A stretch of DNA of 64,000 nt, from the NCBI GenBank assembly GCA_030142905.1, contig JASJOG010000624.1:1-64000 (forward strand). The letters run 5' to 3'. Positions 9,115 to 56,740 of the stretch are shown here, one piece after another. This DNA is from Heliopora coerulea (taxonomy: Eukaryota; Cnidaria; Anthozoa; Scleralcyonacea; Helioporidae). The position numbers were made by a program, and so were the translations under genes. Numbering within the stretch: position 1 is the first letter of the stretch; each line of letters starts with the position of its first letter. The notes beneath the pieces are model-generated. The model was not told where the DNA came from, did not search any database, and saw only the letters and a program-made list of their open reading frames with translations.

Positions 9115-9201
9115 CAAATACACTGCTTTCTTCTTCAGTCGACGGAAGCGTATGGTCAACCTCCTTTAGATCTTGTTCACCTTGGCTTCTACGGCTCAGT
9201 T
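9115..9201 (-). CDS. Host exon, 87 bp, phase 1-1 (type B copy 1)
   Basis: On the minus strand the acceptor is TGCTTTACAG and the donor GTGAG. The exon begins with two bases completing a split codon and ends with one base of the next. Between them are 28 codons rich in Ser, Glu and Asp, including STEEES. The paralogous exon at 22903-22989 has the same length, phase and STEEES motif, which argues strongly for a real exon. The peptide looks unstructured and polar. I do not recognise the protein. Confidence 0.6.
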
Positions 9202-9450
9202 CTGTAAAGCAAAAGAACTATGTCATTGATATATGGTCAACTCTCTTTCTTTCCGACTCAACAGTCATCAAGCTCTCATGTTTCTTAAACATCTAAATGC
9301 TTCAACAGTCATTATATGATTTGCCAGATGGGTAATGGTAAATTAAATCTCGCGAAGTCAGGTGAAATTAACACCAAGAAAGAAACATACGCAATGCGAG
9401 TAAGGGGTTCTTTAACCAGTATTAAAATCCACGAGATATATATTTTAAAT
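9202..9450. other. Host intron, duplicated at 22.99-23.17 kb
   Basis: The similarity to the second locus continues past the acceptor, so intron as well as exon was duplicated. Confidence 0.55.
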
Positions 9451-9668
9451 TGTGGGAGCTTGGAGATATGTTGAATGAGAGATGTACGTTCATCAAGCTT
9501 TATCCTCAGAAAAACGACTTCTGAGCCCCGGACAGGGATCGAACCCCCAATCTTCTGATGACCGGTGAGACGCCCTAACCATTGAGCTACCAAGACTCAG
9601 ATGGTGAGCTAGGGTGCAAGTTCGACATATGTGCGACCTGAGCGGAAGCCACTATATGTTAATAATGT
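9451..9668 (-). mobile_element. tRNA-derived SINE (family 1)
   Basis: On the minus strand a tRNA-like head carries an A box, TAGCTCAATGG, and a B box, GGTTCGATCCC, followed by a tail ending near the CGTTCATC motif. The same unit recurs at 19.4-20.2, 24.1-24.4, 46.6 and 51.7-52.2 kb. Acceptor-stem pairing is poor, so this is not a functional tRNA gene. Confidence 0.85.
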
Positions 9669-10718
9669 GATCTATGAGACATACCTCGCTTTTCACCTAA
9701 AATTACATTGAGGTATGAACATTGTTCATTTAAAATGTTTGTGAAACAAAAAAGAGATCGACTTTATATATTTTTCTTTCGAAAGTAGGTTCAAAATAAA
9801 GAAGAAACCCGTCCAGTTTTTTTCTTTATCAGTTTTCACTATGTAGATGTAAGCATTTGAAATACTAGAATGGTGATATCACAAGGTGGACAGGTTTCGG
9901 CAGAAATACGTTGGCATTATTGTCTCGTAAATCACCACTTTAATGCTTCATGAATAAAACGTGGCCACATTACAGCTTTCTCAAGCATTGATGTGTTATG
10001 GAATACTCAAAATTAATGAGCTGGAGAGTTTTAGATTCGATAAATCATGTGCTGCGAGATTTTTAAATGACTTCGAAAACGAACTCTTTAATACACTAAT
10101 TCATCAAGGTTTGAAAATTAATGTTTTCCAAGTAGAAAAAAATTGAGGAAAGTAAGCGTGTTTTAATCACAATTACAGAAGGGACGCGGTTATGATTTTC
10201 CTTTGTATTATACTCATGAATTGTTAATGAGTTTTTGAAATTTATTGACGCACCATGGCAACATGTGACGTCTCAAGTCCTAATAATGTGTAAACGAGTA
10301 CTAGCTCCATTTTTGAATAAGACTTATACTTGGAATTCAGGATATTGTATCAAAATCATATCCTAAGTAAACAAAGCCAGAAATGATTGTTTACGAAACG
10401 TGAAAATTACAGAATAAAGAATTCTGAAACAAAATGTGTTTCCATGGTAAATATAAAAAGTTGACTAGTCAGCAGACCACTAAAATGGTCACATTGCCCT
10501 CATGTTTGTCATCATTCAGGTCATGTATTACAAAATATCCTCACTTTGATGCTTTTCTGGGAAAGCGTGTCTACCTTGTGACGTCATTGTAATAAGATTT
10601 AAAATGTTTTCCTCGACAACGGCAACTGATGAAGAAATAATTTAAATGGTATTCTTCATTAGTCAGAACTTACAAAGAAAAACAATATAGGTTATTTTGT
10701 GTACTTCATACTCGCATG
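9669..10718. other. Unannotated AT-rich DNA
   Basis: Probably host intron. A 61-codon frame at 9961-10146 has no recognisable motif and is likely chance. Confidence 0.4.
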
Positions 10719-10930
10719 TTACCCTGAGGATGATTCTGAAATAGAGTCGAGACACCGCACATCCTCACTAATATCGAGTGTTAAGTTGTCGCGAGAATCT
10801 CTCGTGCACTTAAATTCGATAAAACGAGCATACTGTCCCCAGTTGACTCGATAACTTAACTGGTAGAGCAGCGGTCCGGAAACTCGAAGACGCGAGTTCA
10901 AATCCCGCTGAAGTCAATTTTTCTAGTTGA
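10719..10930 (+). mobile_element. tRNA-like SINE (family 2)
   Basis: The tRNA-like part at about 10843-10915 has an A-box-like TAACTTAACTGG and a B-box-like AGTTCAAATCC. The 5' part with CTCGTGCACTTAAATT is shared with the minus-strand copy at 23560-23780. It differs from family 1. Confidence 0.7.
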
Positions 10931-12313
10931 CTTTAGCAGTGTACGTCAATTAATGAAATATTAAATAAGACAGCTGACTCTCAATTCGATTCAACCTCTT
11001 GAAATGGTGGTACAAGTAAAACCATAAAAGAGGAGATACGTTATTTCTTTAGCTGAGCAATCGTGAAATTTAACAGTTATTAGAGTCGCTAACGGTGTTT
11101 GGCTACCCTATTTCATGTTGCATCTGAAAAACCAAGAAACCTCTCAATTAATGACTGATCTCCAACAAGTGTTAATGCGTTAATGTATTAGCAACTGTTA
11201 GTGGAAACTAACAAAGGGAAAGGCATCGTGCAAGGAAAAAAATTGGTGTGGCCCAGGCTAAGATGTACTCTGTAACACCAAATGTTTCAAACACTTTAAC
11301 GCCTGAAGACGGCACTTGTCGTTTTTATTAATTTTACCCTGGCTAACGCCAGACAATTTTACTCGTAAAAGGGCAAAAACCCCAGCAGGCTTCCAAGGGC
11401 TAAGCAGATCTAAACATATTATTTAAAATGATCAAATGAGAAAGTCACAAATTGCTGACTACAAACCTATCAAGGTAAAGACAAGACCTTCTCAAATAAA
11501 TTAAGCTTTTCATAATTCTAGAACGCCAATAATATAACTGAACCATATTCAAATCAAAACCCCTGCCTAACATACACAAATACTACACAGGCAAGGTTGC
11601 AACGCTCAATTCTAAACCTATATTTCGTGCACATGTAATATCATCTAAATTTACTAAATAGCATCTAATTAAACTGAATTTTTCCAATCTTGTCTGAATA
11701 TTCAACCGCTATTTTGCTTTTAATCACAGAAGGTTAAAACTGCTTTGCAAAAATTGTTTGATTAAGGAGAGTTTGTGTGGGTTAACAGCAAATTTTTTTA
11801 TACAAAGTAGGAGCTCTATTTTAAATTGATTAGATAAAACACATTTTAAATATGTCCTAAGTTTTCATCCTCAAAGTTTTTGGACAGCTCAGTCGTCAGG
11901 GCGCTGAACATCATACTGAAGGTGGCGAGGTCGATTGTTCGATGAAGTCAAATTTAGGGAGTTGCTAGGTGATTTTTATACTGCAATTGATGCGCCGGAA
12001 AATACGTGAACTTATTTTGCCGTAAGTGAAGGTTGATTTAAATAGATAAAAATTACCCTGTACTTCCAATGTTCCAACGAGGTCACCTCTTCCCATCTTT
12101 TTCAGGAACATTATCAGTTTGTTGACGTCATTCTCACACTTGGTTCCTAATCTCTTATCACCTGAAGAGATTAAGAGCGAAAACGTTTGTGAATAAAAGT
12201 AAAAATTTCAGTGGTTATATTCAAGTTATTACCATTATTCATCCTATAGCTGACTTACACAATTTTTCATATAGAAAACTCGTGTTTGGCAAGTCAACAA
12301 TTTCATTTATGTA
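10931..12313. other. Unannotated DNA with a possible PLE tail
   Basis: Mostly featureless. At 12148-12198, TCACCTGAAGAGA..GCGAAAA..GTGAATAAAAG resembles the hammerhead-bearing end of the PLE at 1873-1932 (shared TCAC/GTGA stem I and tail), but stems II and III do not form well, so it is at most a relic. A degenerate tRNA-like stretch lies near 11885-11950. Confidence 0.4.
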
Positions 12314-13776
12314 TATATATATCTGAAAAGATAAAACTTTTAAAAAAACTTTATTTCAACGTTTCGGGGCACTGCCCCTTTGTCAAGAATAAGAACTACA
12401 AGATAGAAGATGCTCCTCATATACATAGCATTACTTAATAATTAAAAAATCCGTTAAAAATACTCAAAAAAAGTCCCAAAGGTTCAAACCTTTAGGTACA
12501 AAAGAATCCAATTTATATGCCCAAAAACCTTCCCTTTTGGTTGGGTCTGATACATCCGTCCTATCAATAATTTTTACTAGCATATCATTAATTCCCTCAT
12601 GACCCCTCTCATAAAAATGGGCATACAAATGTTCTCCTGGTATACCCCTTTGGCCATTACCATACCTTTCAACACTACTTTTATGGTTATTGAACCTCCT
12701 CCTGAAAGATGTTATTGTACTGCCCACATAAATCTTCGAACACTTTTTACATATTATAAGGTAAATCACTCCTGCCGAATCGCAATCGAGCAAATAATTA
12801 ATATAAAATATACGACCATTTCTACAAAATGTGGAACCTTCCTCCACAAAATTGCAAATTTAACAGCGTGATTTACCACACTTTCGCATACCCTTATCCC
12901 CACTACCTTCTCCCTTAAGTTTAGACCTCACTAAATTATCCTTTAAATTCTTTGGTCTCCGGTATACTATCATCGGCTTTTCTTCAAAAATACTTCTCAT
13001 GTCCTGCGAGGCGTGCAAAATAGACCAGAGTGAATCAATAATTTTACCCACCCCCGACAATGCAGGGTGAAACGTCATAACTAAAGGCAATCTCTTATTT
13101 CTTTTAATATCTCTTCTATTACTATCTTGGCAAAGGTGACTCTCCCTGGTCTTAGCTCTGGCCCTCTCAAATTCCGAATCTACCAAGTTTTCCTTAAAAC
13201 CTCTTTTTATAAAATTACTACGAAGATCTCGTAATCTATCTCTATAACTCTCCTCCGTACTACAAATCCGTTTAACTCTCAAGGCTTGCCCATAAGGAAT
13301 CCCCTCCTTTACATGCCTCGGATGACAGGATCCGTAATGTAAATACTGATGCGTATCCGTTGGTTTACAATAAACATCTGTCGAGATCTTATTACCTTGA
13401 ACCATAACATCTAAGTATGAAAGCTTTTCATACGACCATTCCCATGTATACTTAATTAATTCATGATATGAATTAACATAATCTAAAAATTCTCACAAAC
13501 TTTTCCTTCCATGGAACCAAATGAGGAAAATATCGTCCAAAAACCGCCACCATACTAATGGATCCAGGTGATATCCCCTCAACATTTTCTCCTCTAACTT
13601 AGACATAAAGATGTTGGCAAAAGAGGGTGCAAACTTTGTATCTATTGCCGTACCTAACTTTTGGTGGTAGATTTTGTCTTCAAACTCAAAATAATTATTT
13701 TCTAAAATTAATTTTGCCAAATCTACCAACTCCTCAACAGGCACCCGTTTTTCAGAACCCAAATTACTATTAAATT
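12314..13776 (-). repeat. Left arm of a 1.46-kb inverted repeat
   Basis: This matches 14474-15939 in reverse complement almost base for base. Both arms are PLE sequence and start at the same CTGAAAAGATAAAACT terminus beside TA-rich DNA. Confidence 0.9.
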
Positions 13777-14380
13777 CCTGCATTGCTTCCCTTATACTTT
13801 CTAATCCTTCGTCGTGTGGAATATGTGGATAAAGACCCACAACATCCATACTACAAATAATAGCACCCTCAGGGATATCACCCAGCTCCTTTAATTTATA
13901 CAAAAATTCTGTGGTATCCTTAATAACATGAGGTAAGGTTTTAACAATAGGCTGAAGGTAAAAGTCTACAAATTCCAAAATTCTTTCCGTTGGTGTTCCA
14001 TATTGGAAACTACCGGTCTCCCCGGAACATTAACCAATTTTTTATGAATTTTAGGAAGATAGAATCTACCGATTCCATTTTCTTCCCCTTTTAAATAAAG
14101 ACGATTCTCCCCCGAAATTATTCCGGCTTCCTTCAACCCAATTAATTTCCCATCAACCTCTTTACATAATTTATCCAAAGGGTTTTCCCTAACTCCCTCA
14201 TAAACAGCCATTTCACTTAGCTGTTTATAAGCTTCCTCACAGTATTCTTTTAACCCCCAAACCACTACCGCCGATCCCTTTTCTGCTTCCTTAATAACAA
14301 TATCCCTAAATCCCTTTAAGTCTTTTAAGGCTCTAATCTCCTCTCCACTAAAATTACTATAATTAAGCCCCTCCTCCTTT
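12464..14380 (-). pseudogene. Penelope-like element (second type), minus copy
   Basis: This PLE is of a different type from those at 1-8.5 kb. In order it shows LPKIHKKLVNVPGRPVVSN (RT motifs 1-2), ICSMDVVGLYPHIP (motif A), GTAIDTKFAPSFANIF (motif B, with Asp where PLEs usually have Gly), FLDDIFLIW (motif C), YCKPTDTHQYLHYGSCHP, a Cys-rich linker, then GVIYLIICKKCSKIYVGST (GIY-YIG) and the terminal LDSFVPKGLNLWDFF. A frameshift lies near 14000 and there are in-frame stops after HGRKSL (TGA) and KSRC (TAA). It carries more of the N-terminal RT than the plus copy does. Confidence 0.9.
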
Positions 14381-14473
14381 ATCGAAATAACTCTCTTCTA
14401 AATTCTTAAGAATTAAACCCAATGCTGGATTGAGTATATCCGGTGTCCATGATGATTTAACCTTAAAACGCAG

Positions 14474-15939
14474 GAATATAATAGTAATTTGGGTTTGGGA
14501 AAACGGGTGCCTGTTGAGGAGTTGGTAGATTTGGCAAAATTAATTTTAGAAAATAATTATTTTGAGTTTGAAGACAAAATCTACCACCAAAAGTTAGGTA
14601 CGGCAATAGATACAAAGTTTGCACCCTCTTTTGCCAACATCTTTATGTCTAAGTTAGAGGAGAAAATGTTGAGGGGATATCACCTGGATCCATTAGTATT
14701 ATGGTGGCGGTTTTTGGACGATATTTTCCTCATTTGGTTCCATGGAAGGAAAAGTTTGTGAGAATTTTTAGATTATGTTAATTCATATCATGAATTAATT
14801 AAGTATACATGGGAATGGTCGTATGAAAAGCTTTCATACTTAGATGTTATGGTTCAAGGTAATAAGATCTCGACAGATGTTTATTGTAAACCAACGGATA
14901 CGCATCAGTATTTACATTACGGATCCTGTCATCCGAGGCATGTTAAGAAGGGGATTCCTTATGGGCAAGCCTTGAGAGTTAAACGGATTTGTAGTACGGA
15001 GGAGAGTTATAGAGATAGATTACGGGATCTTCGTAGTAATTTTATAAAAAGAGGTTTTAAGGAAAACTTGGTAGATTCGGAATTTGAGAGGGCCAGAGCT
15101 AAGACCAGGGAGAGTCACCTTTGCCAAGATAGTAATAGAAGAGATATTAAAAGAAATAAGAGATTGCCTTTAGTTATGACGTTTCACCCTGCATTGTCGG
15201 GGGTGGGTAAAATTATTGATTCACTCTGGCCTATTTTGCACGCCTCGCAGGACATGAGAAGTATTTTTGAAGAAAAGCCGATGATAGTATACCGGAGACC
15301 GAAGAATTTAAAGGATAATTTAGTGAGGTCTAAACTGAAGGGAGAAGGTAGTGGGGATAAGGGTATGCGAAAGTGTGGTAAATCACGCTGTTAAATTTGC
15401 AATTTTGTGGAGGAAGGTTCCACATTTTGTAGAAATGGTCGTATATTTTATATTAATTATTTGCTCGATTGCGATTCGGCAGGAGTGATTTACCTTATAA
15501 TATGTAAAAAGTGTTCGAAGATTTATGTGGGCAGTACAATAACATCTTTCAGGAGGAGGTTCAATAACCATAAAAGTAGTGTTGAAAGGTATGGTAATGG
15601 CCAAAGGGGTATACCAGGAGAACATTTGTATGCCCATTTTTATGAGAGGGGTCATGAGGGAATTAAAGATATGTTAGTTAAAATTATTGATAGGACGGAT
15701 GTATCAGACCCAACCAAAAGGGAAGGTTTTTGGGCATATAAATTGGATTCTTTTGTACCTAAAGGTTTGAACCTTTGGGACTTTTTTTGAGTATTTTTAA
15801 CGGATTTTTTAATTATTAAGTAATGCTATGTATATGAGGAGCATCTTCTATCTTGTAGTTCTTATTCTTGACAAAGGGGCAGTGCCCCGAAACGTTGAAA
15901 TAAAGTTTTTTTAAAAGTTTTATCTTTTCAGATATATAT
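14474..15939 (+). repeat. Right arm of the 1.46-kb inverted repeat
   Basis: Partner of 12314-13776, separated from it by 697 bp of N-terminal RT sequence that exists only once. Confidence 0.9.
14477..15790 (+). pseudogene. Penelope-like element (second type), plus copy
   Basis: This starts inside the RT between motifs A and B and then matches the minus copy to its end. The two stops after HGRKSL and KSRC are at identical places. Differences are few: an in-frame 3-bp insertion (DPLVLWW for DPLVWW), Lys for Glu in KKGIPYG, Pro for Ser in LWPIL, and Lys for Asn in GIKDML. The GIY-YIG part GVIYLIICKKC...YVGST is intact. A CTTGACAAA-GGGGC-AGT-GCCCC-GAAAC block at 15867-15893 resembles a decayed hammerhead core. 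Confidence 0.9.
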
Positions 15940-16244
15940 GGTTTTAAAACTTGGGATAAGGATGTTTTTGATAATATACATACATATATATATATATATG
16001 TCCGGCAGGAAACGAACAAGTAACCTTTTGGTGGCCAGAAAGACAAGCCAACAATTGAGCTCAGAGGGAGACAGAACGTCATAAATTTGTGCTGGTTGGA
16101 TTGATGGACGTTTGCGCTACGAGAGCGGCAGCCTGAATGAGACAGTAATGGCCGATTCCCCCTTATTATCTGCTGAGTACAACTACCAGAAGACTTTTCG
16201 AAACCTTCTTAGTTATGCTAATGTAAGCAACTGTCTTTCTATTC
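15940..16244. other. Spacer with short TA repeat
   Basis: Contains a TA tract near 15985 and no recognisable gene. Confidence 0.4.
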
Positions 16245-18430: not shown

Positions 18431-18631
18431 GTAACATGCTGTATTTATCTAATGGAAAAGATGCTGCTGAAGTGTGAACATCAGATATGGGATATCGTTG
18501 CAAATAGTTTACATTCAAGACATTTTAAAATATTCTGACATGCAAGAAAATGGTTTGCTGAGTTAAAGCGAGGTAGTGATCTTTAAGAGGGCAGGACTTT
18601 ATTACCGTGACCTGGCTAAATGAAAGTATAA

Positions 18632-19017
18632 GGCCCCGTCAACACGTAAGCATTTTCTTCGGAAAAGGCGTATTTTTTTATCTGTTTTAGCCTTCTGTCC
18701 ACACGTAAACGATGAGGGGGAGGAGTCGTTTCCACTGGAAACGTAGACTTTCGAAAACCCCTCTTAAAGTGGAGACTTTTGAAAACGGAAACTTTTGAAA
18801 ACGGTGTTGGACCCATTTCCCTAACATGAAGACCAATATCGAGATCATTGATTCTGATTAGCCAGACATGATTTAATTAACACTCCCATCGTTTTCATCG
18901 TTATCGTGTGGACTGGCGAATACGATACAAAACTGCTCGCGTGCACACAATTTTGAGGAGTTTTTAGTTAAATGAAAACGCATAAACTTGAAAAAATGGG
19001 TACATGTGGACGTAGCT
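18632..19017. mobile_element. PIF/Harbinger-type MITE (386 bp)
   Basis: The inverted ends resemble GGCCCCGTCAACACGT, flanked by TAA on both sides (18629-18631 and 19018-19020). It is absent from the duplicate segment at 30.4 kb. No coding capacity. Confidence 0.7.
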
Positions 19018-19219
19018 TAAGTAATGCTTTCCAACAAACGTCCTAAGAAGTATCCTTTTAAAGCAATGATTTTCGGCACAACCTTTCACTTCCCCGGGTG
19101 TTTTTACATAAAATTCTAACCCGGCGCAGATAACAGCAACCACCAACCGTAGTAATGTAAACTTACATAACCAGAAAATAAACGCCACATATATACGTAG
19201 TTATATAACAAAAGTTTAC

Positions 19220-19264
19220 CTGCTCTTGCACTTTCTTTTTGCGCTTTAAATTCTTTAACGACCT
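19220..19264 (-). CDS. Host exon, 45 bp, phase 1-1 (type A copy)
   Basis: Minus strand: acceptor TATTTTGCAG, donor GTAAAC. It encodes VVKEFKAQKESARA between split codons. Closely similar exons lie at 30526-30570 and 56136-56183. Splicing to the 87-bp exon at 9115-9201 keeps the frame (split codon GAA). Confidence 0.6.
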
Positions 19265-19329
19265 CTGCAAAATACGACAAAAAAAGAATATTACTAAAAG
19301 AATTTCGAGGCTCGTATGCCTTTATTGTC

Positions 19330-20012
19330 AACGTCCTGTTTATTTTTAAATAACAGGGCTTTTTTATATACATACTTTTAGGGAAAACATTATATGAAAA
19401 GCTAAATCAAGGTAGATGAACGATCTTCAAGTTCGATACTCATTAAATGATTTCTGAGCCCCAGACGGAGATCGAACCCGCAACTTTCTGATGACCGGTG
19501 AGACGCTCTTACCATTGAGCTACCAAGACTCAGATGATGAGCTAAGGTGCAAGTTGGATATATATGTGCGACCTAAGCGGAAGCCACTATATATTAATAA
19601 TGATTGATGCAGTTTAATGTTTGAGAAATATGAGAGCTTGAATAAATTAAGGTAGATGAACGATCTTCAAGCTTGATACTCAGAAAATGATTTCTGAGCC
19701 CCAGACGGGAATGTTTCTCAAACATTAAACTGCATCAGTCATTATTAATATATAGTGGCTTCCGCTTAGGTCGCACATATATATCGAACTTGCACCATAG
19801 TTCACCACCTGAGTCTCGGTAGCTCAATGGTTAGAGCGTCTTACCGTTCACCAGAAGGTTGCGGGTTCGATCTCCCTCTGGAGCTGAGAAATCATTTTCT
19901 GAGTATCGAGCTTGAAGATCGTTCATCTACCTTGATTTAGCACTTCATATAATGTTTTCCGTTAAAGTATGTATATAAAAAGGCCTGTTATTTAAAAATA
20001 AACAGGAAGATC
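19330..20012. repeat. Large hairpin: inverted duplication with SINE and intron
   Basis: Left arm about 19330-19640 and right arm about 19711-20012 are inverted copies separated by about 70 bp. Each arm contains a family-1 SINE plus about 60 bp of the neighbouring intron, including the CCTGTTTATTTTTAAATAAC segment. Two independent SINE insertions would not share that flank. Confidence 0.8.
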
Positions 20013-20225
20013 GTTCATCTACATTAATATATCCAAGATCTCATGTTTCTCAAACATTAAACTGCAAAAGCTAAATCTTAAGATGATAGATGAACGATCG
20101 TCAAGTTCTATACTCAGAAAAACGATTTCTGAGCCCCAGGCGATTTCTTTGTATAGAGGTTGACGATCGTTCATCTATCATCTTAAGATATTTCCAAGCT
20201 TTCATGTATCTAATATAAAAGCTAA
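20013..20225. repeat. SINE fragments in inverted arrangement
   Basis: The SINE tail motif is present inverted at 20078-20106 and 20159-20188, with a little of the tRNA-like head between them. Confidence 0.7.
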
Positions 20226-20530
20226 ATCGCAAATAAAAGCTTTGTCAGCTAAAACGGTTTGGATACTATTTGAGTTCAATAAAAACAAAATACATCGACG
20301 TCTACACCACTGCCAAAGCATTGCTAAAAAGATCTAACTTTTGACCTTGCTTGCACGAAGTTTACTTTGTAACACTGCCGCTTATCCGTAGGTGCGTGTC
20401 AGCAAACAAAGAAATTTTAATTCGGATGCATATTATGAAACAAATTTATAAAGAGGTTTGTGATAGAAATCATTTTAATAACTCGTAGAAGCTGCATTAT
20501 CATATCTAAAGCTGCATTATCGGAGGTATT

Positions 20531-21602: not shown

Positions 21603-21610
21603 GTTGTACC

Positions 21611-22699: not shown

Positions 22700-23175
22700 T
22701 GTAAATGATCAGTTCACGATCCGTAAGATAAGTGTAAAGATGTTTTTCTCTTATATTTTGTCCTACGATTTAATGAGAAATACGTTAGCTTTCAAAAACG
22801 TTTCCCTTTGATAGTGTATATGATTTATTTTCCGTAAATTAAACAGTTTTTAATTAATATAATTTAGTTCTATATTTCTTTACTTTAAAAATATTTTCTC
22901 ACCAGATGCATTGCTTTCTTCTTCAGTAGACTGAGGCGCATTGTCACACTCAATTACATTCTGTGCACCACGGCTGCCACTGCTTCGTTCTGTAACGTAA
23001 AAGAACTATCAGTGATACATGTTAAACTCTGTTCACTTCTTACCAAACAAACATTTTATGATCTTCCGGTTAGGTTACAGTTGTCTAAATTTCGAGGTCA
23101 GGTAAAATTACGACCCAAAAAACCGAGGGGGATCCATGTTCCTTTAACCAGGGTTAAAATCTACGGTGCTCTACA
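22700..23175. repeat. Duplicated host segment around 87-bp exon (copy 2)
   Basis: Aligns with 8920-9450, exon and both introns, in the same orientation. Confidence 0.75.
22903..22989 (-). CDS. Host exon, 87 bp, phase 1-1 (type B copy 2)
   Basis: Minus strand: acceptor ACGTTACAG, donor GTGAG. It encodes 28 codons ending STEEESNAS, the same length and phase as the exon at 9115-9201. It joins in frame upstream to the 45-bp exon at 30526 and downstream to that at 19220. Confidence 0.6.
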
Positions 23176-30270: not shown

Positions 30271-30990
30271 TGAAACATATTGCGATAATAGCTGCTGAAG
30301 TGTAAACATCAGATGTGGGATATCGTCGTAGATCGTTTACATTCACGACATTTTAAAATCTTCTGACATGCAAGACAATGGTTTGCTGAGTTAAAGGGAG
30401 GTAGTAATCTTTAAAATGGCAAGACTTTGTTACAGATACCAGGTTAACCACCAACCCTGGTTGTGCATACTTATATAGCCAGAAAATAAACGCCACATTT
30501 ATACGTAGTGCTAACAAATGTTTACCTGCTCTTGTACTTTCAGATATTTCTTTAATTTCTTTAACGACCTCTGCAGAATGCGACAAAAAGAATATTACTA
30601 ATAGAATTTCGATGCTCATATGCCTTTATTGTCAACGTCTTGTTTATTTTTAAATAACAAGTCTTTTTTATATAAATACTTTTACGGGTAATTTTATATA
30701 AAAACCTAAATCGTACATAAACTTCTTTATCAGTTGTAAAGGTTTGGATACTGTTTAAGTTGAGCAAAAACAAAATACATCGACGTCTACATCAGTGACA
30801 AAGCATTGCTAAAAGATCTAATTTTTCACCTTGTTTGCAGTAAGCTACTCTAGAACATGGCGTTTGTCGACAGGTGTATGCCAGCAGACAATGAAGTTCT
30901 AATTCGAGTGCATATTATAAAACAAATTTATAAAGGTGTTTGTGATAAACATAACTCGTAGAAGTTGCATTATCGGATCTAAAATACTCG
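30271..30990. repeat. Duplicated host segment around exon (copy 2)
   Basis: Aligns with 18431-20530 minus the MITE and SINEs inserted there. Confidence 0.75.
30526..30570 (-). CDS. Host exon, 45 bp, phase 1-1 (type A copy)
   Basis: Minus strand: acceptor GCATTCTGCAG, donor GTAAAC. It encodes VVKEIKEISESTRA, the paralogue of the exon at 19220-19264 with identical length and phase. Confidence 0.6.
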
Positions 30991-34300: not shown

Positions 34301-34902
34301 AGAGATGTGTGTCCAAAGGCGGCAGTAGCGTTGCAAGCCCGCCATGACTTTCCGGGTTTGTTCGGGTTCACGACGGATGGTGGGGAAGAAACCCTTGGTG
34401 CCTTACCAGCATTGTCGCTTCCTCCGGGGTCAATTTCTTGATATAGCCCATCTGCAAATCGTTATCTATCGTACTCTGATGCGCCATCGCGAGGGCCGTG
34501 TTCTTTGCAAGTCGCTTTTCCAGGGAACGAAGATGGTTCTCGGTAACGGGGCAGTTATTCGGTACTTTGGCTGTGGGGTGTTTCCAAAAGAGTCCAGTTT
34601 CGTGACAATCGCCAAGTTTCTTCGTTGTCGATTCCAAAATCTTGTGTGCAATTTCGTCTTCTTCCGACCTGGAGTTTTTCCTGTCGTACTTGCACCCAAA
34701 GGACTCAGTTTTCCACCACTCTTGCCCTTGTCTGTTGAAGTCCTCGTCTGGAGTGGATACGTGAACCTTTAGCACGTGCTCAGTTCCCTTTGTTGGGCCA
34801 GGTAGATGCGCTGCACCCTTCCATCTGAGAGCTGCACGAACAGCACGGGGAATACCTTTGGGGTCGGTCCGAACTTGTAATGGAACAACGAGGTCGAAGA
34901 CA
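31391..34902 (-). pseudogene. BEL/Pao retrotransposon pol
   Basis: In minus-strand order: end of protease; RT from 34775 (LEKRLAKNTALAMAH), motif A ALCADIEAMFSQV near 34195, catalytic NNFYVDDLF near 33985; the family-specific SLVSSIYDPLGIVAPFTL at 33640; RNase H region 33559-33137; integrase zinc domain with HLRCHHEGNKHVRH and CRRC (32520-32430); integrase core YSDNGTTFVGAE near 32140; and the typical LLNGRPLTHVS...NNFLLGRSNPNLPP (31910-31800). Frameshifts near 34370 and 34050, a stop at about 33627 and others make it inactive. A LINE cuts it at 34902. Confidence 0.9.
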
Positions 34903-38876: not shown

Positions 38877-38924
38877 CATGTTTAATAGCTTCTTTCCCAG
38901 TTCCTTGATCTCCTTTCACGTTTT
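38877..38924 (-). CDS. Host exon, 48 bp, phase 1-1
   Basis: Minus strand: acceptor TTTTTATTTTAG, donor GTAAG. It encodes NVKGDQGTGKEAIKH between split codons. The length equals the 56136 exon and the phases match the rest of the series, but I see no intron similarity to the other copies. Confidence 0.45.
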
Positions 38925-42527: not shown

Positions 42528-42529
42528 TA

Positions 42530-44215: not shown

Positions 44216-44318
44216 AGTTCAAATGACTTTAATTGCAGTAGTAAACGTTGAGACAACAAGACTCGGGCAAAACAAGATGGTGAACCTACGTGAGGGTAAC
44301 ATGTATTAACCAGTATCG
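44216..44318 (-). repeat. LTR-like repeat, right
   Basis: Partner of 39953-40055; the gag side of the element ends here. Confidence 0.6.
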
Positions 44319-47130: not shown

Positions 47131-47149
47131 AACCTGAGCGGAAGCCACC

Positions 47150-47214
47150 ATATATAGATAGATAGATAGATTAGATTAGATTAGATTAGATTAGATTAGA
47201 TTAGATAGATTTTA
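47150..47214. repeat. (GATA)n/(GATTA)n tail
   Basis: The microsatellite 3' tail of the minus-strand LINE that follows. Confidence 0.85.
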
Positions 47215-48175
47215 TTTTGACACGGTAGTTCTTTCAGAAGTAAAAATTACATCAATTTCTAAATCTGTTCTACCTAGAAGCCGTGTGTAAAAACTAACTA
47301 TATTTACATTTTTTTTTATCATGATCTATAAAGATATGCACACAATATTTACAGAGTATTTACAATATTAGTATTACAATATTGTTGTCAATGCAAAAGT
47401 TCTCGAACTTTCTTTTTAAATTTTGTGAGGTTTTCCTCTGCTTTTAATGAGTTAGTTAAGGAGTTCCACAGCATGGTTCCTGATACTGCAAAGCTGTCAT
47501 GATAGGTTTTAGTTCGAACTTTTGGTATTTGGAAATCACAGTTGGATGCTCTGAGGTTGTAGACACTTGATCCATACTGTTTTTCAAACATATCATTCAA
47601 ATATGATGGAGCATGTCCATTTACAATTTTGTGTATCATGACAGCTCTTTGGTATTTCCTGTTGTGAGCTCCTGTAGACCAGACCATCCTAGATGAGAGA
47701 AAATTTCACTGGTAAGGCGTGTATATGGCCCGCTTGTAATTATACGAGCTGCACGGTTTTGCAACTTTTGGAGTTTATCTGAAAGTGTTTGGTCTACACT
47801 ATCCCACACAGCAGAGCAATACTTGAAGTGAGGCTCTACAACAGCATAGTATATGTTGGTCAGTAATTGTTGGTTAACAAATGGCTTGGCTTTCTTTAAG
47901 ACTCGTAAACCAGTTTTAACTTTCTTTATTGCGTTTCCTATATGGTATTTCCATGTCAAATTTTCATCAATTGTGAGACCTAGACATTTCACTTTTTCAG
48001 CTTGTTTTAGTGTTGTTCCATTAATAGATAAATTTAGGGTATCATTAAGAGTTGCCAATCTTTGTCGTGATCCAATTAGCATATATTCGGTTTTAACGAA
48101 ATTTAGTGAAAGCTTGTTTGCACTAAGCCATTCTACGACCCTGTTTATATCCTTCTCTAATATTGTCTTGATTTC
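47215..48175 (-). pseudogene. Jockey-type LINE C-terminal fragment
   Basis: Minus strand from 48082: EKVKCLGLTIDENLTWKYHI, then VVEPHFKYCSAVWDS, KLQKLQNRAARII, and a shift near 47650 to MIHKIVNGHAPSYL and the WNSLTNSLKAEENL terminus. This is the thumb/C-terminal part of a CR1/L2-like RT; the catalytic part is missing. Confidence 0.85.
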
Positions 48176-48275
48176 AGGTATACTAGATCCAGGGATACTA
48201 GATCCAGGGATACTAGATCCAGGGATACTAGATCCAGGTATACTAGATCAGGTATACTAGATCAGGTATACTAGA
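48176..48275. repeat. 15-bp minisatellite
   Basis: Four to six units of GGATACTAGATCCAG with shortened ATACTAGATCAGGT variants at the 5' truncation point of the LINE. Confidence 0.85.
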
Positions 48276-49253
48276 TCCAGATCCTAGATAGATAGAAAGA
48301 TAGATAGATAGATAGATTAGATAGATTAAATAGATTAGATAGAGTAGATAGATTAGATAGATTAGATAGATTAGATAGATTAGATAGAGTAGATAGATTA
48401 GATAGATTAGATAGATTAGATAGATTAGATAGATTAGATAGATTAGATAGATTAGATAGATTAGATAGATTAGATAGATTAGATAGAGTAGATAGATTAG
48501 ATAGATTAGATAGATTAGATAGATTAGATTAGATAGATTAGATAGATTAGATAGATTAGATAAATTAGATAGATTAGATAGAGTAGATAGAGTAGATAGA
48601 TTAGATAGATTAGATAGATTAGATAGATTAGATAGATTAGATAGATTAGATAGATCAGATAGATCAGATAGATTAGATAGATTAGATAGATTAGATAGAT
48701 TAGATTAGATAGATTAGATAGAGTAGATAGATTAGATAGATTAGATAGATTAGATAGATTAGATAGATTAGATAGATTAGATAGAGTAGATAGATTAGAT
48801 AGATTATATAGATTAGATAGATTAGATAGATTAGATAGATTAGATAGATTAGATAGATTAGATAGATTAGATAGATTAGATAGATTAGATAGATTAGATA
48901 GATTAGATAGATCAGATAGATTAGATAGATTATATAGATTTGATAGATTAGATAGATAGATAGATTAGATAGATTAGATAGATTAGATAGATTAGATAGA
49001 TTAGATAGATTAGATAGAGTAAATAGAGTAGATAGATTAGATAGATTAGATAGATTAGATAGATTAGATAGATTAGATAGATTAGATAGATTAGATAGAT
49101 TAGATAGATTAGATAGAGTAGATAGATTAGATAGATTAGATAGATTAGATAGATTAGATAGATTAGATAGATTAGATAGATTAGATAGATTAGATAGATT
49201 AGATAGATTAGATAGATTAGATAGATTAGATAGATTAGATAGATTTGATAGAT

Positions 49254-49284
<31 letters not shown>

Positions 49285-49295
49285 ATAGATAGATA
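48276..49295. repeat. 1-kb satellite of 9-bp TTAGATAGA units
   Basis: About a kilobase of GATTAGATA repeats with occasional GAGTAGATA, ATCAGATA or dropped units. The minus-strand frame of repeating Ile-Tyr-Leu across it is an artefact of the 9-bp period. Confidence 0.95.
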
Positions 49296-51640
49296 TATAG
49301 ATTTATTTAAAATTACATCGCAGCCCAAAAAAGGCTGAATTTCGTAATTATTTACATTTAAAAATTTTTACAATAAAACTTTTATCTATACTATACTACC
49401 CGATATGTCTCACAAGCAATTTTTTAATGAATAACTTTAATTAGATTTAAAACTATATAACATTAAATTAACTAAATAGTATTTTCAAAAAAACTTAAAA
49501 ATTTAGCAAGTATACAAATTAGAGTATAGGCGGACGTTTCATTAATTGCGCATAGCGAAAATAAAAGAGTTTATTGTTCTATTTGTTTAAACGCGTGGGA
49601 TGTCAAAATTTCGCTGATTTCGTAACTTATAATATGGATTATATCTTTCTGGTAATAATTTATTGAGTTTATGGCTTGGATCTGAAGTTATAGATTGAAA
49701 AGGTTTATTATGCAGATGTTCATGATGGTCCTTCATGGGTTTAACACCTAAACTTTCAAGAGCAGTATAATAATCCAAGTCTGCCATAATAATAGTCATG
49801 ACCCTTTTCTCCAGACGCACAAACTCACTTTTTAAGTATTGCGGTAGGGAATGGTAAAAAGCTGGTATTCCATAATCTACCACCGATCTAATACACAATA
49901 CATAAAACAACGCTAAATCTTGCGCTGGTACTTTAGCCCGCCTTAATTGTACTAAAAAATACAATCTTTTACCAACTTTCTTTATAACTTCATCTATGTG
50001 GGCATTCCAGGTCAAGTTGTTACTAAAAGTCAAACCTAACAGTTTAACGCAATTCACTACTTCCAACTCCTTGCCATTAACAACTACAGGATCAAAAACT
50101 GCAGGTATCTTTGCAAATGAAATTCTTAATTCTTTACATTTGCTCGGATTTAAGTGGACTGTGTTTTCATGTGATCATTCCATAACACGATCAGCTGTAA
50201 ACTGGGCGTTGCTGACTTCCTCCTTGGGAACTATTTCGGACGTTGTCGTATCATCTACATATTTCCAAACATGATGATCACTGATTTCTAGGTCATTGAT
50301 CATAAGGGTAAACACACCAAAGTCCCAACTTTTTTCCATGTGGTACCCCAGAAGGGACTGATCCCCACTCCGAATAGCAGCTGTCAGCCATTCTAATTCT
50401 TTGAAATCTGTTCGTTAGAAAGTTGATTATCCAATTGACGACACTTCTAGGTAAATCCAGGTTACATAACTTATCAATTAAGATGTTGTGGTCAATGAGA
50501 TCAAAAGCTTTACGATAATCAAATAATATAGTTCTTACAGTTGCCCCATTACCATCAGTCCCTAGATACCAGTGATGCAACATACTAATTAAAGCTATCG
50601 TGGTAGAAGATTTTTGGATTACTCCAAACTGGTTCGCATCAATTACTTTTAATATTGCTGGTTAAACATAGTCTTCTACTATGAACTCTTCCGCCAATCT
50701 GGAAGAACAAAGTGTGAGCGAAATAGGTCTTAAGTCTTTCTTCAGATCGTGAACGGACTTCGCTCTCGTACTGGTGATACATCAGCCATCTTCCAAACGA
50801 TGGGTAAACATTGCTCATGATAGGAAGCATTTAGGACGTACATAAAGGAAAGGGCCACCATGTTCGAATATTCCTTTAAAAACCAGTTTGGTATTTCATC
50901 AGGTCAAGACGCTTTACCCTGGTTAAGCTTCATCAAGGCCTTCTCTACCCGACTCTCAGTTATACTTAGGAACTCCGGCAACTCTTCCAAGGGAAGACGT
51001 GCTGGTTGAGCTGGTAAACGGTACTCTTGAAGCGGTTCCAGAAAAGCTGCATTAATAACATTAGCTTGTCCATGTTGCAAGAGATTCAAAAACTCGTCAA
51101 CATTCCTTTGACATGTTACGTCACTGTTTTTGATTTTCATATTACTAAGATGTTTCACTTCTTTTCACCATCTCTTTGGATTTTCCCCTTTCAGTTGGTG
51201 TATATTCAATTTATAATAATTTGCTCTGCATTTTTTCCTTTCTCTGTTGACTAAATTGCTATAATACTTAAATTTAGAAGAATTCGTACCGTATTTGTTA
51301 AACGTTTTTTGTCTTTTCAGAATAAGGGATTTTAATTTCTGAGTCATTCATGGAGCATCAGCCGTGCAGATCCGAATCTGTTTTTCTGGCATAAGTAAAT
51401 CTAGGCCAGTATGCACTACTCCATAAAAGTGTTCCACATTTTTTCACAACTATTCAGAGGGTCAAACATCGAAGACCAATCCACGAGGTTCAAATATCTT
51501 CCCATTTCATCCTTACGGCTTCTCCGTCGGTCACGTCTTGTAATCACTTTCTTGGTGTTACTTTTATGTTCTTTAATTTTAAGGGAAGCCACGACAGTGT
51601 TATGGTCAGATAAACCAAATGGTGGATAAGCTTGCGGCGA
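49296..51640 (-). pseudogene. Jockey-type (CR1-like) LINE
   Basis: Minus strand: linker LKSLILKRQKTFNKYG (51330), the VNAAFLEPL-like VINAAFLEPLQEYR and ITESRVEKALMKLNQGK (51060-50910), RT motif A ILFDYRKAFDLIDHNIL (50510), motif B region SGVPHG (50330), then VNCVKLLGLTFSNNLTWNAHI and PAFYHSLPQYLKSEFVRLEKR (50060-49790). Frame breaks occur near 50890, 50640, 50310 and 50180. The 3' end joins a GATA tail. Confidence 0.85.
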
Positions 51641-51659
51641 ATACTAGTAGTCATGCGTA

Positions 51660-52185
51660 TTAGTTAACACAAGGTTTAGTGTGGCATATGTTAATAATGA
51701 TATTGATCAATTTATATTTTAGAAGTGCAAGAGCTAGAAGATATCTTGAGATGATAGATAAACGATCGTCAAGCTCTATCCTCAGAAAAATGATTTCGGA
51801 CCCCCAGACGGGGATCGAACCCTCAACCTTCTGATGACTGGTAAGACGCTCTAAACATTGAGCTACCAAAACTCTGATGGTGAGCCAAGGTGCAAGAATG
51901 TTGCGGGTTCGATCCCCGTCTGGGGCTCAGAAATCGTTTTTCTGAGCATAGAGCTTCACGATCACTCATCTATTATCCAAAGATATCTCCAAGCTCTCAC
52001 CCTTCTAAAATACAAATTTGATTAATATCATTATTAACATATAGTGGCTTCCGCTCAGGTGGCACATAAGTCGAACTTGCACCTTAGCTCACCATCTGTT
52101 TAATGGTTAAAGCGTCTCACCGGTAATCAGAAAGTTGAGGGTTCGATCCCCGTTTGGGGCTTAGAAATCGTTTTTCTGAGGATCA
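51660..52185. mobile_element. Inverted SINE pair (family 1)
   Basis: A minus copy (51700-51893) is followed at once by plus-strand SINE tail and then a full plus copy (52035-52180). A and B boxes are seen in the plus copy (TTTAATGG degenerate, GGTTCGATCCC). Confidence 0.8.
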
Positions 52186-53975
52186 ATCAATCAATCAACT
52201 TTTATTAAAGAGGGTAACGACATAACAGCATTAACTGATAAACTAGCTGTCCTCGATTACATAAATCAAAATAAATAAATAAGAAATATAAGAACTATAA
52301 GTTGACACTATAAAACTGTAAAATGATCAATATCCTTTAAAATATCAACATAAAAATTTATCAGAGCTTTCTTAAAATTATTCACACTTTTGATCACCTT
52401 CAGTTTGTTTGGCAAGGCGTTCCATAGCCTTGCCATTCTGACTGAAAAGGACCGGCCTCCTTCAGTTTCTCTTTTAAAGCGCGGACAAACCAAGTTTATT
52501 GAACCATATCGACTATTTCGATCATGGATGTCAGAATTTTCTCTTAAGATGTCCTCTGTATATACTGGGCAGTCGCAGAACAGACGTTTGTGAACCAGAA
52601 CACACACGTTCACTTTTACTTCACGAGAAAAAAGATAGCTTCTCCAATTTCTTAAATAGCTCAACACTATTCGCCCTTGCATCCGCATCTAGAATAACCA
52701 TTGCAGCTAGCTTTTGAAGTCGCAAGACCCTTTGTAAGTTCTCAATTTAACACGATGACCCCATGGTTACGCCATACATCATAGGCTCTTTGATCATAGC
52801 GTTATAATAAATAATAAGCTGCTCAACGGGAAGAAAACTCTTGATTTTTGCAAAACAGTGATGCGTTGAGAAAGCTTCTTACAGAGAGAATCGACATGCT
52901 CGTCAAAGGACATTCCTCCGTCTAACTTTACACCCAACAAGAAGTCATTAATGAATATGAAGGACAATACGGGTCCCAAAATGCTACCCTTTGAAACCCC
53001 AAGATTTCCTCTTTCAGCCCTAGAATGACATCCATTTATGTTTACATATTGTCTACGACCACGTAGGTAGCTTGTAAATAATGGAAGATAGTCCTCACCA
53101 ATTCCAAGAGCCTTGAGCTTAGATATCAACAAGTGATGATCTACAAGGTCAAACGCTTTCTTATAATCCACGAAAACTATCCCAGTTACTCTGTCTTTAT
53201 CGAGATCAAGTAAAAACTGATCTACAAATCTTATTAAGGCTGTCTCAGTTCAATGCAATTTTCTAAACCCAGACTGGAGTCTATAGAGAAGTTTATTTTT
53301 ACTGAGAAATGCACATGCAGCTCGACAGATGTGTTTCTCCAACTGTTTTGACAGAATAGGTGAAACTGATATCGGTTGGTAGCTGTTCTAGTCATCTCTG
53401 CTTCCATTCCCTTTATAAACCTGTATAACCTTCGCTGTTTTCCAGACAATCGGGAACTGTTTCGTATACAAACAAAAATTTAACACCCTAGTAAGAGAAG
53501 GCGCTATATCAGGTGCAGCAACTTTAAGGATCTTCACACTAACGCCTTCATCACCAGTTGTCTTATGTGATGGGATAGACAATAACAATTCCAATACATC
53601 CTTTTGAACAACAAGGACATCTCAGAGTTACTATCTGGTATAAAACTAATATCAGACGGACTTTGGTACCTACCAAACAATGCAAGGATTTTCTAAGGCT
53701 GGTCAATAAAGTAACAGTTGAAAATCTCAGCAATAGTTTTATTTTCCGTTATTACTACGTCGTTCTCAACTATTTGCAATATTCCATTTTTCGTTTCACT
53801 GCCATCCTTAGACAAACACTTGATCAAGTTCCAAAGTTTACTTGAATTATTCTTGTGTTCAGAAGCCTTTTCTTTAAAATAGTCTTGCTTAGTTTTCTTA
53901 ATCAATTTATTCACGCTATTTTTGACGATTGCTCGTCTATCATCTGAAGTAATCAACTGTCTTTCCATTCTCTTT
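52186..53975 (-). pseudogene. Jockey-type LINE with RT core deletion
   Basis: The 3' tail (ATCA)n is at 52186. Minus strand: KTKQDYFKEKASEHKNN (53890), MELLLSIPSHKTTGDEGVSVKILK (53590), WKTAKVIQVYKG, MDYKKAFDLVDHHLL (motif A, 53165), SKGSILGPVLSFIFINDFLLG (motif B, 52990), then immediately SFDEHVDSL, so the catalytic ADD segment is missing. The C-terminus is RLWNALPNKLK. Frame breaks near 53610 and 53390. Confidence 0.85.
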
Positions 53976-54375
53976 CAGTGTTAAATATTTGCATGAAAAA
54001 GAAAACGTCGTAAGGTATTCTTGTGCCGGTATTCAGCTGACGTAATAAGGGGAACCGACCATTCTGTATCAACGTTATGAATATTGTACATCACAGTTAT
54101 TCAGGTGTAAACCTTCAAGCTTTCACTTCTATGTCACTGTACAACATTCTTAACGTCGAAAGGGATGTCACTGTGTTGAGACAATTTCGTGTCGGAAATC
54201 TTAGACTGAAAAAATTACCTGTAGTTCTCACTCATTTGCTTTAAAAGCAGTTCAGAAATTTTCATGTCAAGACTTGTCAGTGCACTCGAAAAGTGTACTG
54301 ACTGTTGTGGAAGTCACTGTTGCATTATAATATTGATATATAAGATATCAAGGACCGAAGTACGTTAATTCACTT
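53976..54375. repeat. Duplicated host intron segment (copy 2)
   Basis: Empty-site version of 16245-16900, lacking the hAT MITE. The left edge is cut by the LINE. Confidence 0.8.
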
Positions 54376-54690
54376 ACCGATTAAATTATCAACTCTGTTT
54401 CGTTGAAATTTTTTACGGCTAAACTAAAGGTATTATTAAACAAACGAGTATTTTTGTACGTCATCATTTAGGTTTATGTGTCATTTGACCATTCTATAGA
54501 AGGCCAAAACGCCATTATGCAGGCATCTTGATGTGGGTGGGTGGTTGGCTGGCTGGGTTTGTGGCAATTACGTGATAGCCCAATAAGTTACGTGTATGAG
54601 TGAAGAATTTACGGAACGTGAAGGACAGGTCGCCAATATCGAGTGGAGCGCGTGGTCCTACGTTTGACGTCCGAGAGAGAACGTTTTGTG
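54376..54690. other. Unannotated host DNA
   Basis: Nothing recognised; a donor-like GTAAGT near 54370 (-) was rejected. Confidence 0.4.
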
Positions 54691-54693
54691 TTA

Positions 54694-55404
54694 GGCCTAG
54701 TTCAGACGTAGAAGTTCTGTCGCTTTTAATTCGTCACATTTAATACTACGAAAACTCGACGGAGGTGACAAGTTTCAGTTCAGAAGTAGAATTTAATGTG
54801 TCGCATTTAATTCGAATCTTGAAATGTGACACCAAACAGCGCGGTTGTTGATTATTTCACCAAGCGGAAATAGGTCATTCAGACCAAAGTTTTCAAAATA
54901 AGAAGAGAAACGCGGCTTAGATGACTCCAAATATTGCGCTATTAAGACATTTGAGGAGTCATTTAATTCGTCATCATCGTCTGCTTTAACAGATATTGCC
55001 CGGGTCTAATACTTCAGTCCCTGTAACAGGTGACTTTTTTTTATTAGCGTCCCATTCACGCGTATCGTCAGTTTTCTCAACCACAGAGCAGTCTGGACAG
55101 CTCTTCACTGGCACAGCACAAAGAAAACACTCTTGTTTTTTTCTCGTTTCCACTACTTGGACAAGTGTTCTGCTCCTATGCCATGTTGAAAATGATACTC
55201 GTGGGGTCCACGAAGCTTCAAACGTTGTATCATTGGATAAGAAAACTAATTTTACTAATTTATGCATTTTATCCGACTGTATTTTATCCGACGTCTGAAT
55301 CAACATCGAATATCCGTCAAATAAAGTCAGTTCAGAAATCGCATTTCCATCGAACAGAATTGGTCGCATTAAATGCGACTGAACTTCAACTTACGGACTA
55401 AGCC
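54694..55404. mobile_element. PIF/Harbinger-like element (711 bp)
   Basis: The ends GGCCTAGTTCAG and its imperfect complement GGACTAAGCC are flanked by TTA (54691-54693 and 55405-55407). Inside, a Cys-rich minus frame (ECFLCAVPVKSCPDCSV) lies at 55369-54986. The middle 54910-55200 is similar to the sequence just outside the element at 55408-55690. Confidence 0.65.
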
Positions 55405-55407
55405 TTA

Positions 55408-55690
55408 GATCACTGCGAATATTGCGCTGTTAAAATGTTTGTGGAGTCGGTTTATTCTTCATCTTCATCTGATTTAAAGATCTTGCCCGAGTCTAATCTT
55501 TCAGTCCCTGCAACACGCGACTCTTTTATGAGCCTCGCAGGCATAGGTATTGTCAGCTTTCTCTGCAACGAGCAGTCTGGACCGATCTACATTGATATAG
55601 CACTTAGAAAACACTCGTGTTTTTTCCCGTTTCCATAACTTGTACAAGTGTCAGATTCTCGTTACGTGTGTATATCAACGGAGCCATTGC
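55408..55690. repeat. Tandem relative of 54910-55200
   Basis: Shares ATATTGCGCT, TCAGTCCCTG, GAGCAGTCTGGAC and GAAAACACTC in the same order as the interior of the Harbinger-like element. The reading frame on the minus strand is weaker here. Confidence 0.65.
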
Positions 55691-56135
55691 GTTTACGCTG
55701 ATCACACTTAAAATACGTCATTTCCGCGAAAGGCCACTGGCATTTAATTACTTAAACCGTTACCATACCAAAAGAATTATTTTTATTCAGTTCAATGTGA
55801 TCCATTTTGGAACCTGTATTTCTTAATACTATTTATGTCATCAACAACTAAGTAAGTGGACACATGCACACACTGTGTGCCTATTTTTTATATTTGTAAT
55901 TTCATTTAATTCCATTGGGGAAAGTCTAAATCTGTTTTATAAGCCTTATGTGGTTTCTTTTATACTTCCTCACCACATGTCTGTATAAATATTGATATTT
56001 ATTGTCTTTTGTAACATTTTGTGGTAAGCTTAATAAACTCAAACTTAAACTCAAACTCAACTTGTTATGTTACTGGTAGGGATACGGCATTGGCAGGTTA
56101 TAAACTGACATGTCTAATAAAAAAACTGTGTTTAC
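55691..56135. other. Host intron
   Basis: AT-rich; nothing recognised. Confidence 0.4.
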
Positions 56136-56183
56136 GTGAACTTTCATTTTTAACCGTTCCTTCAATGAATTCGTCGACTACCT
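56136..56183 (-). CDS. Host exon, 48 bp, phase 1-1 (type A copy)
   Basis: Minus strand: acceptor CTTATTCAG, donor GTAAAC. It encodes VVDEFIEGTVKNESS. The start VV-EF matches the exons at 30526 and 19220, and intron sequence 1.8 kb downstream matches that following the 19220 exon. Confidence 0.55.
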
Positions 56184-56628
56184 CTGAATAAGATGACAAA
56201 AGATAATCTAAGAAAGACTTCTCAAACATTTATAATTAGACTCAATAACTGTGTTTTCTAGTTTGTGTGCTAAAGTTACTAATCTACTTACTCCTCAACA
56301 AAAGCAAATTTCAAAATCTCCTTAATAAAAATATTCAATTTGCCCATAGTCAGTTACTCGCGTTTCACTCACAAGCTCTAAATAAATTTTATAACCAATA
56401 AATTGAAATGAAATATACGAAACAGAAATTCATGGACCGAACGAATAAGTCCGCTGAAACCCGAAGAGAAGCGAACCGTGCGAAGCTGCACAGTGCGCAA
56501 CGGCTGTCTCAGAGAAAGCTTGGTGGAAATTTCAGTAAGAGAAATAACCAAAACAAACCAAACGCTTCGAGCTAAGTGCGTCCGTAAATCGACAAGAACT
56601 TCATTTATATCGCCAATTCGATGTTTAC
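56184..56628. other. Host intron
   Basis: Between two predicted exons. The open minus frame continuing from the exon into 56378 is read-through into intron. Confidence 0.45.
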
Positions 56629-56740
56629 CTCGCTCGAGGTTGATTTGGGGTCCGTATATTTCAAAGAATAGATCACCTTCGTGCAGCTCTGTAGTTACGT
56701 CCTTAATTCTATTTAATTGCCACGACTTCAAGCAAATTCT
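56629..56740 (-). CDS. Host exon, 112 bp, phase 0 to 1
   Basis: Minus strand: acceptor GCTGTTTACAG, donor GTAAAC. It encodes 37 codons, with phrases SWQLNRIKDVTTEL and LFFEIYGPQINLER, then one base of a split codon. That base joins the 56183 exon in frame (GAG). This is the only exon in the series that looks like folded protein. No family recognised. Upstream exons lie beyond the window or under the transposons. Confidence 0.55.

What the first reader, a model, noticed from the sequence alone, without database searches (positions are those of the whole stretch)
9115..56740. Repeating phase-1 mini-exons in one minus-strand host gene
Seven short segments with acceptor and donor signals lie on the minus strand at 56740-56629, 56183-56136, 38924-38877, 30570-30526, 22989-22903, 19264-19220 and 9201-9115. 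All junctions between them are phase 1 and the joined frame stays open. The 45-48 bp type (VVKEF.., VVKEI.., VVDEF..) and the 87-bp type (..STEEES..) alternate, and flanking intron sequence is duplicated with them. This suggests an exon module duplicated in tandem inside a gene with transposon-filled introns over more than 47 kb. Multiples of three with phase 1-1 make each exon skippable, so splice variants of the polar peptide are possible.
Basis: partly seen in the sequence, partly recalled or inferred. Interest (0 to 1): 0.8.

Follow-up and report, generated by a model that had tools for sequence, protein, structure and literature searches.

The report
Tandemly duplicated mini-exons among transposons
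A stretch of DNA packed with transposons, apparently from an animal, holds a row of very short exons, some of them copies of one another, that probably encode a charged, floppy part of a protein and could be skipped without breaking it; the arrangement is a known kind, and whether the protein is made is not known.

Summary
All seven segments exist as stated, with AG/GT borders, and join to 157 open codons. The 45-bp exons (30570, 19264) and 87-bp exons (22989, 9201) are real duplicates with their introns, same order and strand. The 48-bp exon at 56183 is an older relative of the 45-bp type, alike only in exon and splice signals. The 48-bp exon at 38924 matches neither type, so alternation holds for the last four exons only. 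The 112-bp segment rests on splice signals and frame alone. A frame-blind splice scan gives phase 1-1 open segments in 9 of 27 cases on this strand, 1 of 23 on the other (p 0.014). The recent copies differ at least as much in exons as in introns yet keep frame and splice sites (about 1% expected neutrally). All 64 skip combinations stay open. No protein relative was found; the genome search did not complete. Best reading: tandem duplication of a two-exon module encoding a fast-changing acidic linker. Transcription, one-gene linkage and exon skipping are unproven.

The parts
56629..56740 (-). candidate exon, 112 bp, phase 0 in, phase 1 out (RICLKSWQLNRIKDV...QINLER)
   Evidence: AG/GT borders and open frame; acceptor rank 82 of 3332, donor rank 69 of 3564; no paralogue in the window
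56136..56183 (-). 48-bp phase 1-1 exon, older copy of the 45-bp type (VVDEFIEGTVKNESS)
   Evidence: profile match 56203-56129, E 0.0005 and 0.0014, reciprocal E 0.12 and 0.24; exon shuffles 7 and 27 of 5000; weak donor
38877..38924 (-). 48-bp phase 1-1 exon, unrelated to the other types (NVKGDQGTGKEAIKH)
   Evidence: acceptor rank 88 of 3332, donor rank 5 of 3564; no paralogue
30526..30570 (-). 45-bp phase 1-1 exon, module copy B (VVKEIKEISESTRA)
   Evidence: paralogue of 19264-19220 with introns
22903..22989 (-). 87-bp phase 1-1 exon, module copy B
   Evidence: paralogue of 9201-9115 with introns; best-scoring phase 1-1 candidate of the strand
19220..19264 (-). 45-bp phase 1-1 exon, module copy A (VVKEFKAQKESARA)
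9115..9201 (-). 87-bp phase 1-1 exon, module copy A
30291..30983 (-). 45-type block, copy B: homologous stretch around the exon
   Evidence: self-comparison
18463..20510 (-). 45-type block, copy A, interrupted by unshared sequence at about 18619-19127 and 19421-20208 (the latter SINE-like)
   Evidence: self-comparison; Rfam tRNA match at 19457-19529
22702..23165 (-). 87-type block, copy B
   Evidence: self-comparison
8914..9433 (-). 87-type block, copy A
   Evidence: self-comparison
12087..12161 (-). possible extra phase 1-1 exon of 75 bp between the 45- and 87-bp exons of copy A (DKRLGTKCENDVNKLIMFLKKMGR)
   Evidence: splice score 17.1; no copy elsewhere in the window; unproven

Best explanation
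These are coding cassette exons of one gene on the minus strand that runs through the window and probably beyond both ends. A module of two exons (45 bp and 87 bp, phase 1-1) with its introns was duplicated head to tail; an older duplication had earlier separated the 48-bp exon at 56183 from the 45-bp type. Transposon insertions stretched the introns to between about 0.4 and 17 kb. The exons encode a strongly acidic, polar, probably disordered linker. Because each internal exon is a multiple of three in phase 1-1, and every possible junction codon is Glu or Gln, copies can be added, lost or skipped without breaking the frame; selection keeps frame and splice sites while residues drift or are diversified. 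Shown: duplication, retention of splice sites and frame, open combinations, lack of residue conservation in the recent pair. Inferred: that all exons are in one transcript, that the product is made, that it is a disordered linker, and that exons are skipped.
For: Segments and open join. Collinear duplicated blocks in the same order and strand. Third 45-type copy in which the match covers the exon plus about 20 bp before and 7 bp after; introns beyond are no better than random (169 and 90 of 300 random stretches as good), and the exon differs in length by exactly one codon. Neutral simulations keep frame, splice sites and no indels in both exons of a module in 235 and 249 of 20000 runs. 64 of 64 skip combinations open, 21 of 21 junction codons E or Q. 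Last 120 residues: 23 Glu, 16 Ser, pI 4.6, GRAVY -1.08.
Against: No relative among about 5.8 billion proteins in two searches, so no cross-species support. In the recent pair exons diverge as much as introns or more (32 of 132 sites against 80 of 470, p 0.076; dN 0.33, dS 0.24, intron K 0.19), so there is no sign of purifying selection on residues. The 38924 and 56740 segments have no paralogue. The 56183 donor is weak and the reciprocal profile match is weak. The pair was noticed because it is intact, which biases the 1.2% figure. Recognisable homology covers only about 0.5 to 0.7 kb per block, not the whole supposed unit. No transcript data.
Confidence: 0.6

Rival explanations
1. Exons of a long non-coding RNA, or of a dying gene: splice sites are kept, the open frame is fortuitous and the sequence drifts neutrally.
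For: No protein relative; exon divergence not below intron divergence in the recent pair; 45-bp exons open in two phases.
Confidence: 0.2
2. The 45-bp and 87-bp blocks are parts of dispersed repeats (transposons) that happen to carry splice-like borders, each inserted twice; there is no gene.
For: The window is rich in transposons and each block is only about 0.5 to 0.7 kb of recognisable homology; the rest of the supposed 11-14 kb unit shows none.
Against: Same order and strand in both copies; no other full copy in 64 kb, only an inverted repeat of the upstream intron at 19921-20009 and a weak partial match of the 87-type intron at 10970-11067 (E 0.037); a third 45-type copy alike over exon and splice signals only; splice scores among the best of the strand.
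Confidence: 0.12
3. A special case of the best explanation: a micro-exon-gene-like secreted diversifier, in which exons are skipped to make a pool of variant secreted peptides and residues are under positive selection.
For: Short symmetric exons in long introns; nonsynonymous divergence higher than intron divergence (Fisher p 0.046) with dN/dS about 1.35; skip combinations all open.
Against: Exons (45-112 bp) longer than the 15 bp typical of schistosome genes (passages of PMC10526429); the 5' end and any signal peptide are not seen; few sites (126), one of several tests; the 87-bp exon (64 of 87 identical) is hardly more diverged than its upstream intron (49 of 65 identical); no transcripts.
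Confidence: 0.15

Closest known systems
Titin PEVK exon array (vertebrates)
   Same: Repeated short exons, tandem duplication aided by LINE-1 elements in introns, many splice isoforms of different length (passages of PMC6469411). That the exons share one phase and encode a disordered charged spring is recalled.
   Different: No sequence relation seen; far fewer exons here; 2 Pro in 120 residues; splicing variation not shown
Schistosome micro-exon genes (MEGs)
   Same: Very small symmetric exons in long introns; dN/dS above 1 reported for the mature parts of three families (passages of PMC4350168)
   Different: Exons here 45-112 bp and introns up to 17 kb, against 6-81 bp (most 15) and up to 5 kb; residues polar and acidic, whereas Pro, Phe and Leu are prominent in MEG proteins (passages of PMC10526429); no signal peptide seen; organism unknown
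Tandem exon duplication in general, including mutually exclusive exons (search listing and starts of abstracts only: PMC9013439, PMC9741552)
   Same: Head-to-tail duplicated exons in one gene
   Different: Here the exons are multiples of three, so mutual exclusion is not required
Elastin (recalled; a paper search gave nothing useful)
   Same: Two kinds of small same-phase exons alternate
   Different: A polar acidic tail here, not hydrophobic repeats

Membership tests
Tandem exon duplication (kind of event) | two or more homologous exons in the same orientation with homologous flanking introns | tested here: met
   45-bp and 87-bp pairs
Tandem exon duplication (kind of event) | copies lie in one transcription unit | not testable with these tools
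   no transcript data; only frame and phase compatibility
Schistosome micro-exon genes | most of the coding sequence in very small symmetric exons (6-81 bp) | tested here: inconclusive
   6 of 7 segments symmetric, 4 of 7 below 81 bp; whole gene not seen
Schistosome micro-exon genes | N-terminal signal peptide | not testable with these tools
   the 5' end of the gene was not found in the window
Schistosome micro-exon genes | alternative inclusion of exons in transcripts | not testable with these tools
   no RNA data
Titin PEVK region | sequence relation, or P-E-V-K-rich repeats | tested here: not met
   no significant Pfam or PDB match, though PEVK repeats may have no model there; 2 Pro in 120 residues

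The most novel reading that the evidence does not exclude
An orphan gene in an unidentified animal that works like schistosome micro-exon genes: a modular array of phase 1-1 exons, any subset of which yields an open acidic peptide, with residues diversified faster than the neighbouring introns, i.e. an independent origin of splice-made peptide variety.
Probability: 0.12. Interest if true: 0.6.

Novelty: new member of a known kind. Interest (0 to 1): 0.35.

Why it matters
It is a testable example of a multi-exon module growing by tandem duplication while transposons swell its introns, with a young copy pair and an older copy in one locus. If exon skipping is real, it would add a case to the genes that use symmetric mini-exons to vary a peptide. 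If not, it is an ordinary orphan gene of a sort that automatic annotation easily misses.

Tried and rejected
Pfam and PDB searches of the joined peptide gave nothing significant (best E 0.36 and 0.72). Two protein-collection searches of the joined peptide gave nothing (171 and 499 candidates).

Other strong splice candidates on the minus strand were set aside as host exons: 289-197, because a neighbouring frame of 1-400 reads by eye like a BEL/Pao element and the adjacent 1-91 repeats 34812-34901 inside such an element; 1008-934, antisense to an ORF that looks Penelope-like by eye; 19877-19845, in SINE-like sequence. 60587-60417 (phase 0-0, best score of the strand, 20.3) would fit in phase before the 112-bp segment, but it lies about 0.4 kb from the end of the hAT ORF and has no copy in the window; left open. 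A search for hAT end repeats gave two weak pairs only. An altered genetic code was considered because a Penelope-like ORF is split by single stops in both inverted copies; the stops are TGA and TAA, so it is read as broken. A relation of the 38924 exon to either exon type was tested and not found.

Seven paper searches were made; apart from passages of three papers only listings were seen. One search (micro-exon genes with cnidarian or mollusc words) listed 10 of 10,018 papers, none of the 10 holding 'micro-exon genes'; the rest were not seen, so this is no claim of absence.
Full report
What was checked. The six internal exons are multiples of three and enter and leave in phase 1. The first segment enters in phase 0, so an upstream exon must end in phase 0; it has a shorter alternative donor at 56677.

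Is it more than chance? I scored splice-site pairs with generic weight matrices (recalled values). At lower thresholds the strands differ less (14 or more: 13 against 8; 12 or more: 24 against 15). Without asking for an open frame, 27 non-overlapping exon-like pairs on the minus strand and 23 on the plus strand reach 15.5; 9 of 27 and 1 of 23 are symmetric, open and phase 1-1 (Fisher p 0.014). Dropping four phase 1-1 candidates that I judged to lie in transposons (three minus, one plus) leaves 6 of 24 against 0 of 22, p 0.022; other candidates in transposons were left in the denominators, and the six include the unproven 12161-12087.

Duplication. Self-comparison shows two blocks copied in the same order and strand: the 45-bp exon block (30291-30983 against 18463-20510, broken in copy A by two unshared stretches) and the 87-bp exon block (22702-23165 against 8914-9433), at 76 to 87% identity in the main pieces and 64% in one end piece (alignments). 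The spacing differs (10.5 to 13.8 kb) because of unshared sequence. A profile of the two 45-bp blocks finds 56203-56129 on the minus strand with E 0.0014, and a shorter profile with E 0.0005; the reciprocal single-sequence profile gives only 0.12 and 0.24. The match runs from about 20 bp before the exon to 7 bp after it, and the introns beyond match no better than random stretches (169 and 90 of 300 as good). That fits an old duplicate whose exon and splice signals were kept. The exon alone beats composition shuffles (7 and 27 of 5000 as good) and is one codon longer. The 38924 exon fails: 865, 1688 and 2715 of 5000 shuffles as good against the three 45-type exons, 404 of 890 window stretches as good against the 87-type. 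So the array reads 112, 48 (45-type), 48 (unrelated), 45, 87, 45, 87: the module [45 + 87] is duplicated once, with an older single 45-type copy.

How it evolves. Between the recent copies 32 of 132 exon sites differ against 80 of 470 intron sites (Fisher p 0.076); dN 0.33, dS 0.24, intron K 0.19; nonsynonymous against intron p 0.046. The contrast is uneven: the 45-bp exon is 36 of 45 identical with flanks at 92% and 84%; the 87-bp exon is 64 of 87 identical with flanks at 75% and 80%. Residues are therefore not conserved in this pair and may be diversified, but the numbers are small and the test is one of several. Frame and splice sites are nevertheless kept: a neutral simulation with the intron rates keeps both exons of a module intact in 235 and 249 of 20000 runs; since the pair was noticed for being intact, this is an optimistic figure. 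VV(K/D)E at the start is shared by all three 45-type copies.

What it could do. All 64 subsets of the six internal exons behind the first segment stay open, and 21 of 21 possible junction codons are Glu or Gln. The last 120 residues hold 23 Glu, 16 Ser, 2 Pro, no Trp or Tyr, pI 4.6, GRAVY -1.08: a polar acidic linker that is probably disordered (inference). Exon copies can be added or skipped without harm to the frame. Whether they are skipped in the organism is unknown.

Surroundings. Of 20 ORFs that I chose from the 88 listed, 6 match transposon-type Pfam models above the cut-off (DDE_3, DUF5641, three RVT_1, hAT dimerisation; DUF5641 is counted as retroelement-linked from recall), five of these six between the seven segments and the hAT upstream of them; one matches ALKBH8_N, three match RVT_1 or Peptidase_A17 below the cut-off, and 10 match none of these. 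Four tRNA-like matches in Rfam coincide with repeated, SINE-like sequence. The organism is not identified; the best scored relative of the hAT ORF is from Haliotis asinina at 55% identity.

Relatives. None for the joined peptide in Pfam, PDB or the protein collection. The whole-genome search did not complete in ten attempts. The nearest known arrangements are the titin PEVK array (passages of PMC6469411) and schistosome micro-exon genes (passages of PMC10526429 and PMC4350168); neither is shown to be related by descent.

Verdict. The gene-level interpretation is likely but unproven; the arrangement is a known kind. Its best use is as a test case for exon-module growth in an orphan gene.

Noticed in passing
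12315-15939: Two copies of an element that looks Penelope-like by eye (one part matches RVT_1 below the cut-off), inverted, 99% complementary over 1243-bp arms, both broken by the same stops (TGA, TAA, TGA).
   Followed up: partly
48175-49303: Long array of a 9-bp unit (TAGATAGAT, 115 copies) beside a 15-bp array (7 copies) that overlaps the end of a LINE-like ORF (by eye; no Pfam match) at 47636-48247.
   Followed up: no
60417-60587 (-): The best-scoring exon-like segment of the minus strand (171 bp, phase 0-0), in phase with the 112-bp segment; about 0.4 kb from the end of the hAT ORF, status open.
   Followed up: partly
58192-60024 (+): Open ORF of 610 codons of a hAT-type transposase; best scored relative is an abalone protein (55%).
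   Followed up: partly
49587-50174 (-): An ORF that looks LINE-like matches Pfam ALKBH8_N above its cut-off; I recall this model as often hitting reverse-transcriptase ORFs.
   Followed up: no
19344-19998: Inverted SINE-like pair (90% complementary, 288-bp arms) in the intron just before the 45-bp exon of copy A.
   Followed up: partly
54916-55651: Local direct duplication of about 250 bp (78%), downstream of the 56183 exon on the minus strand.
   Followed up: no
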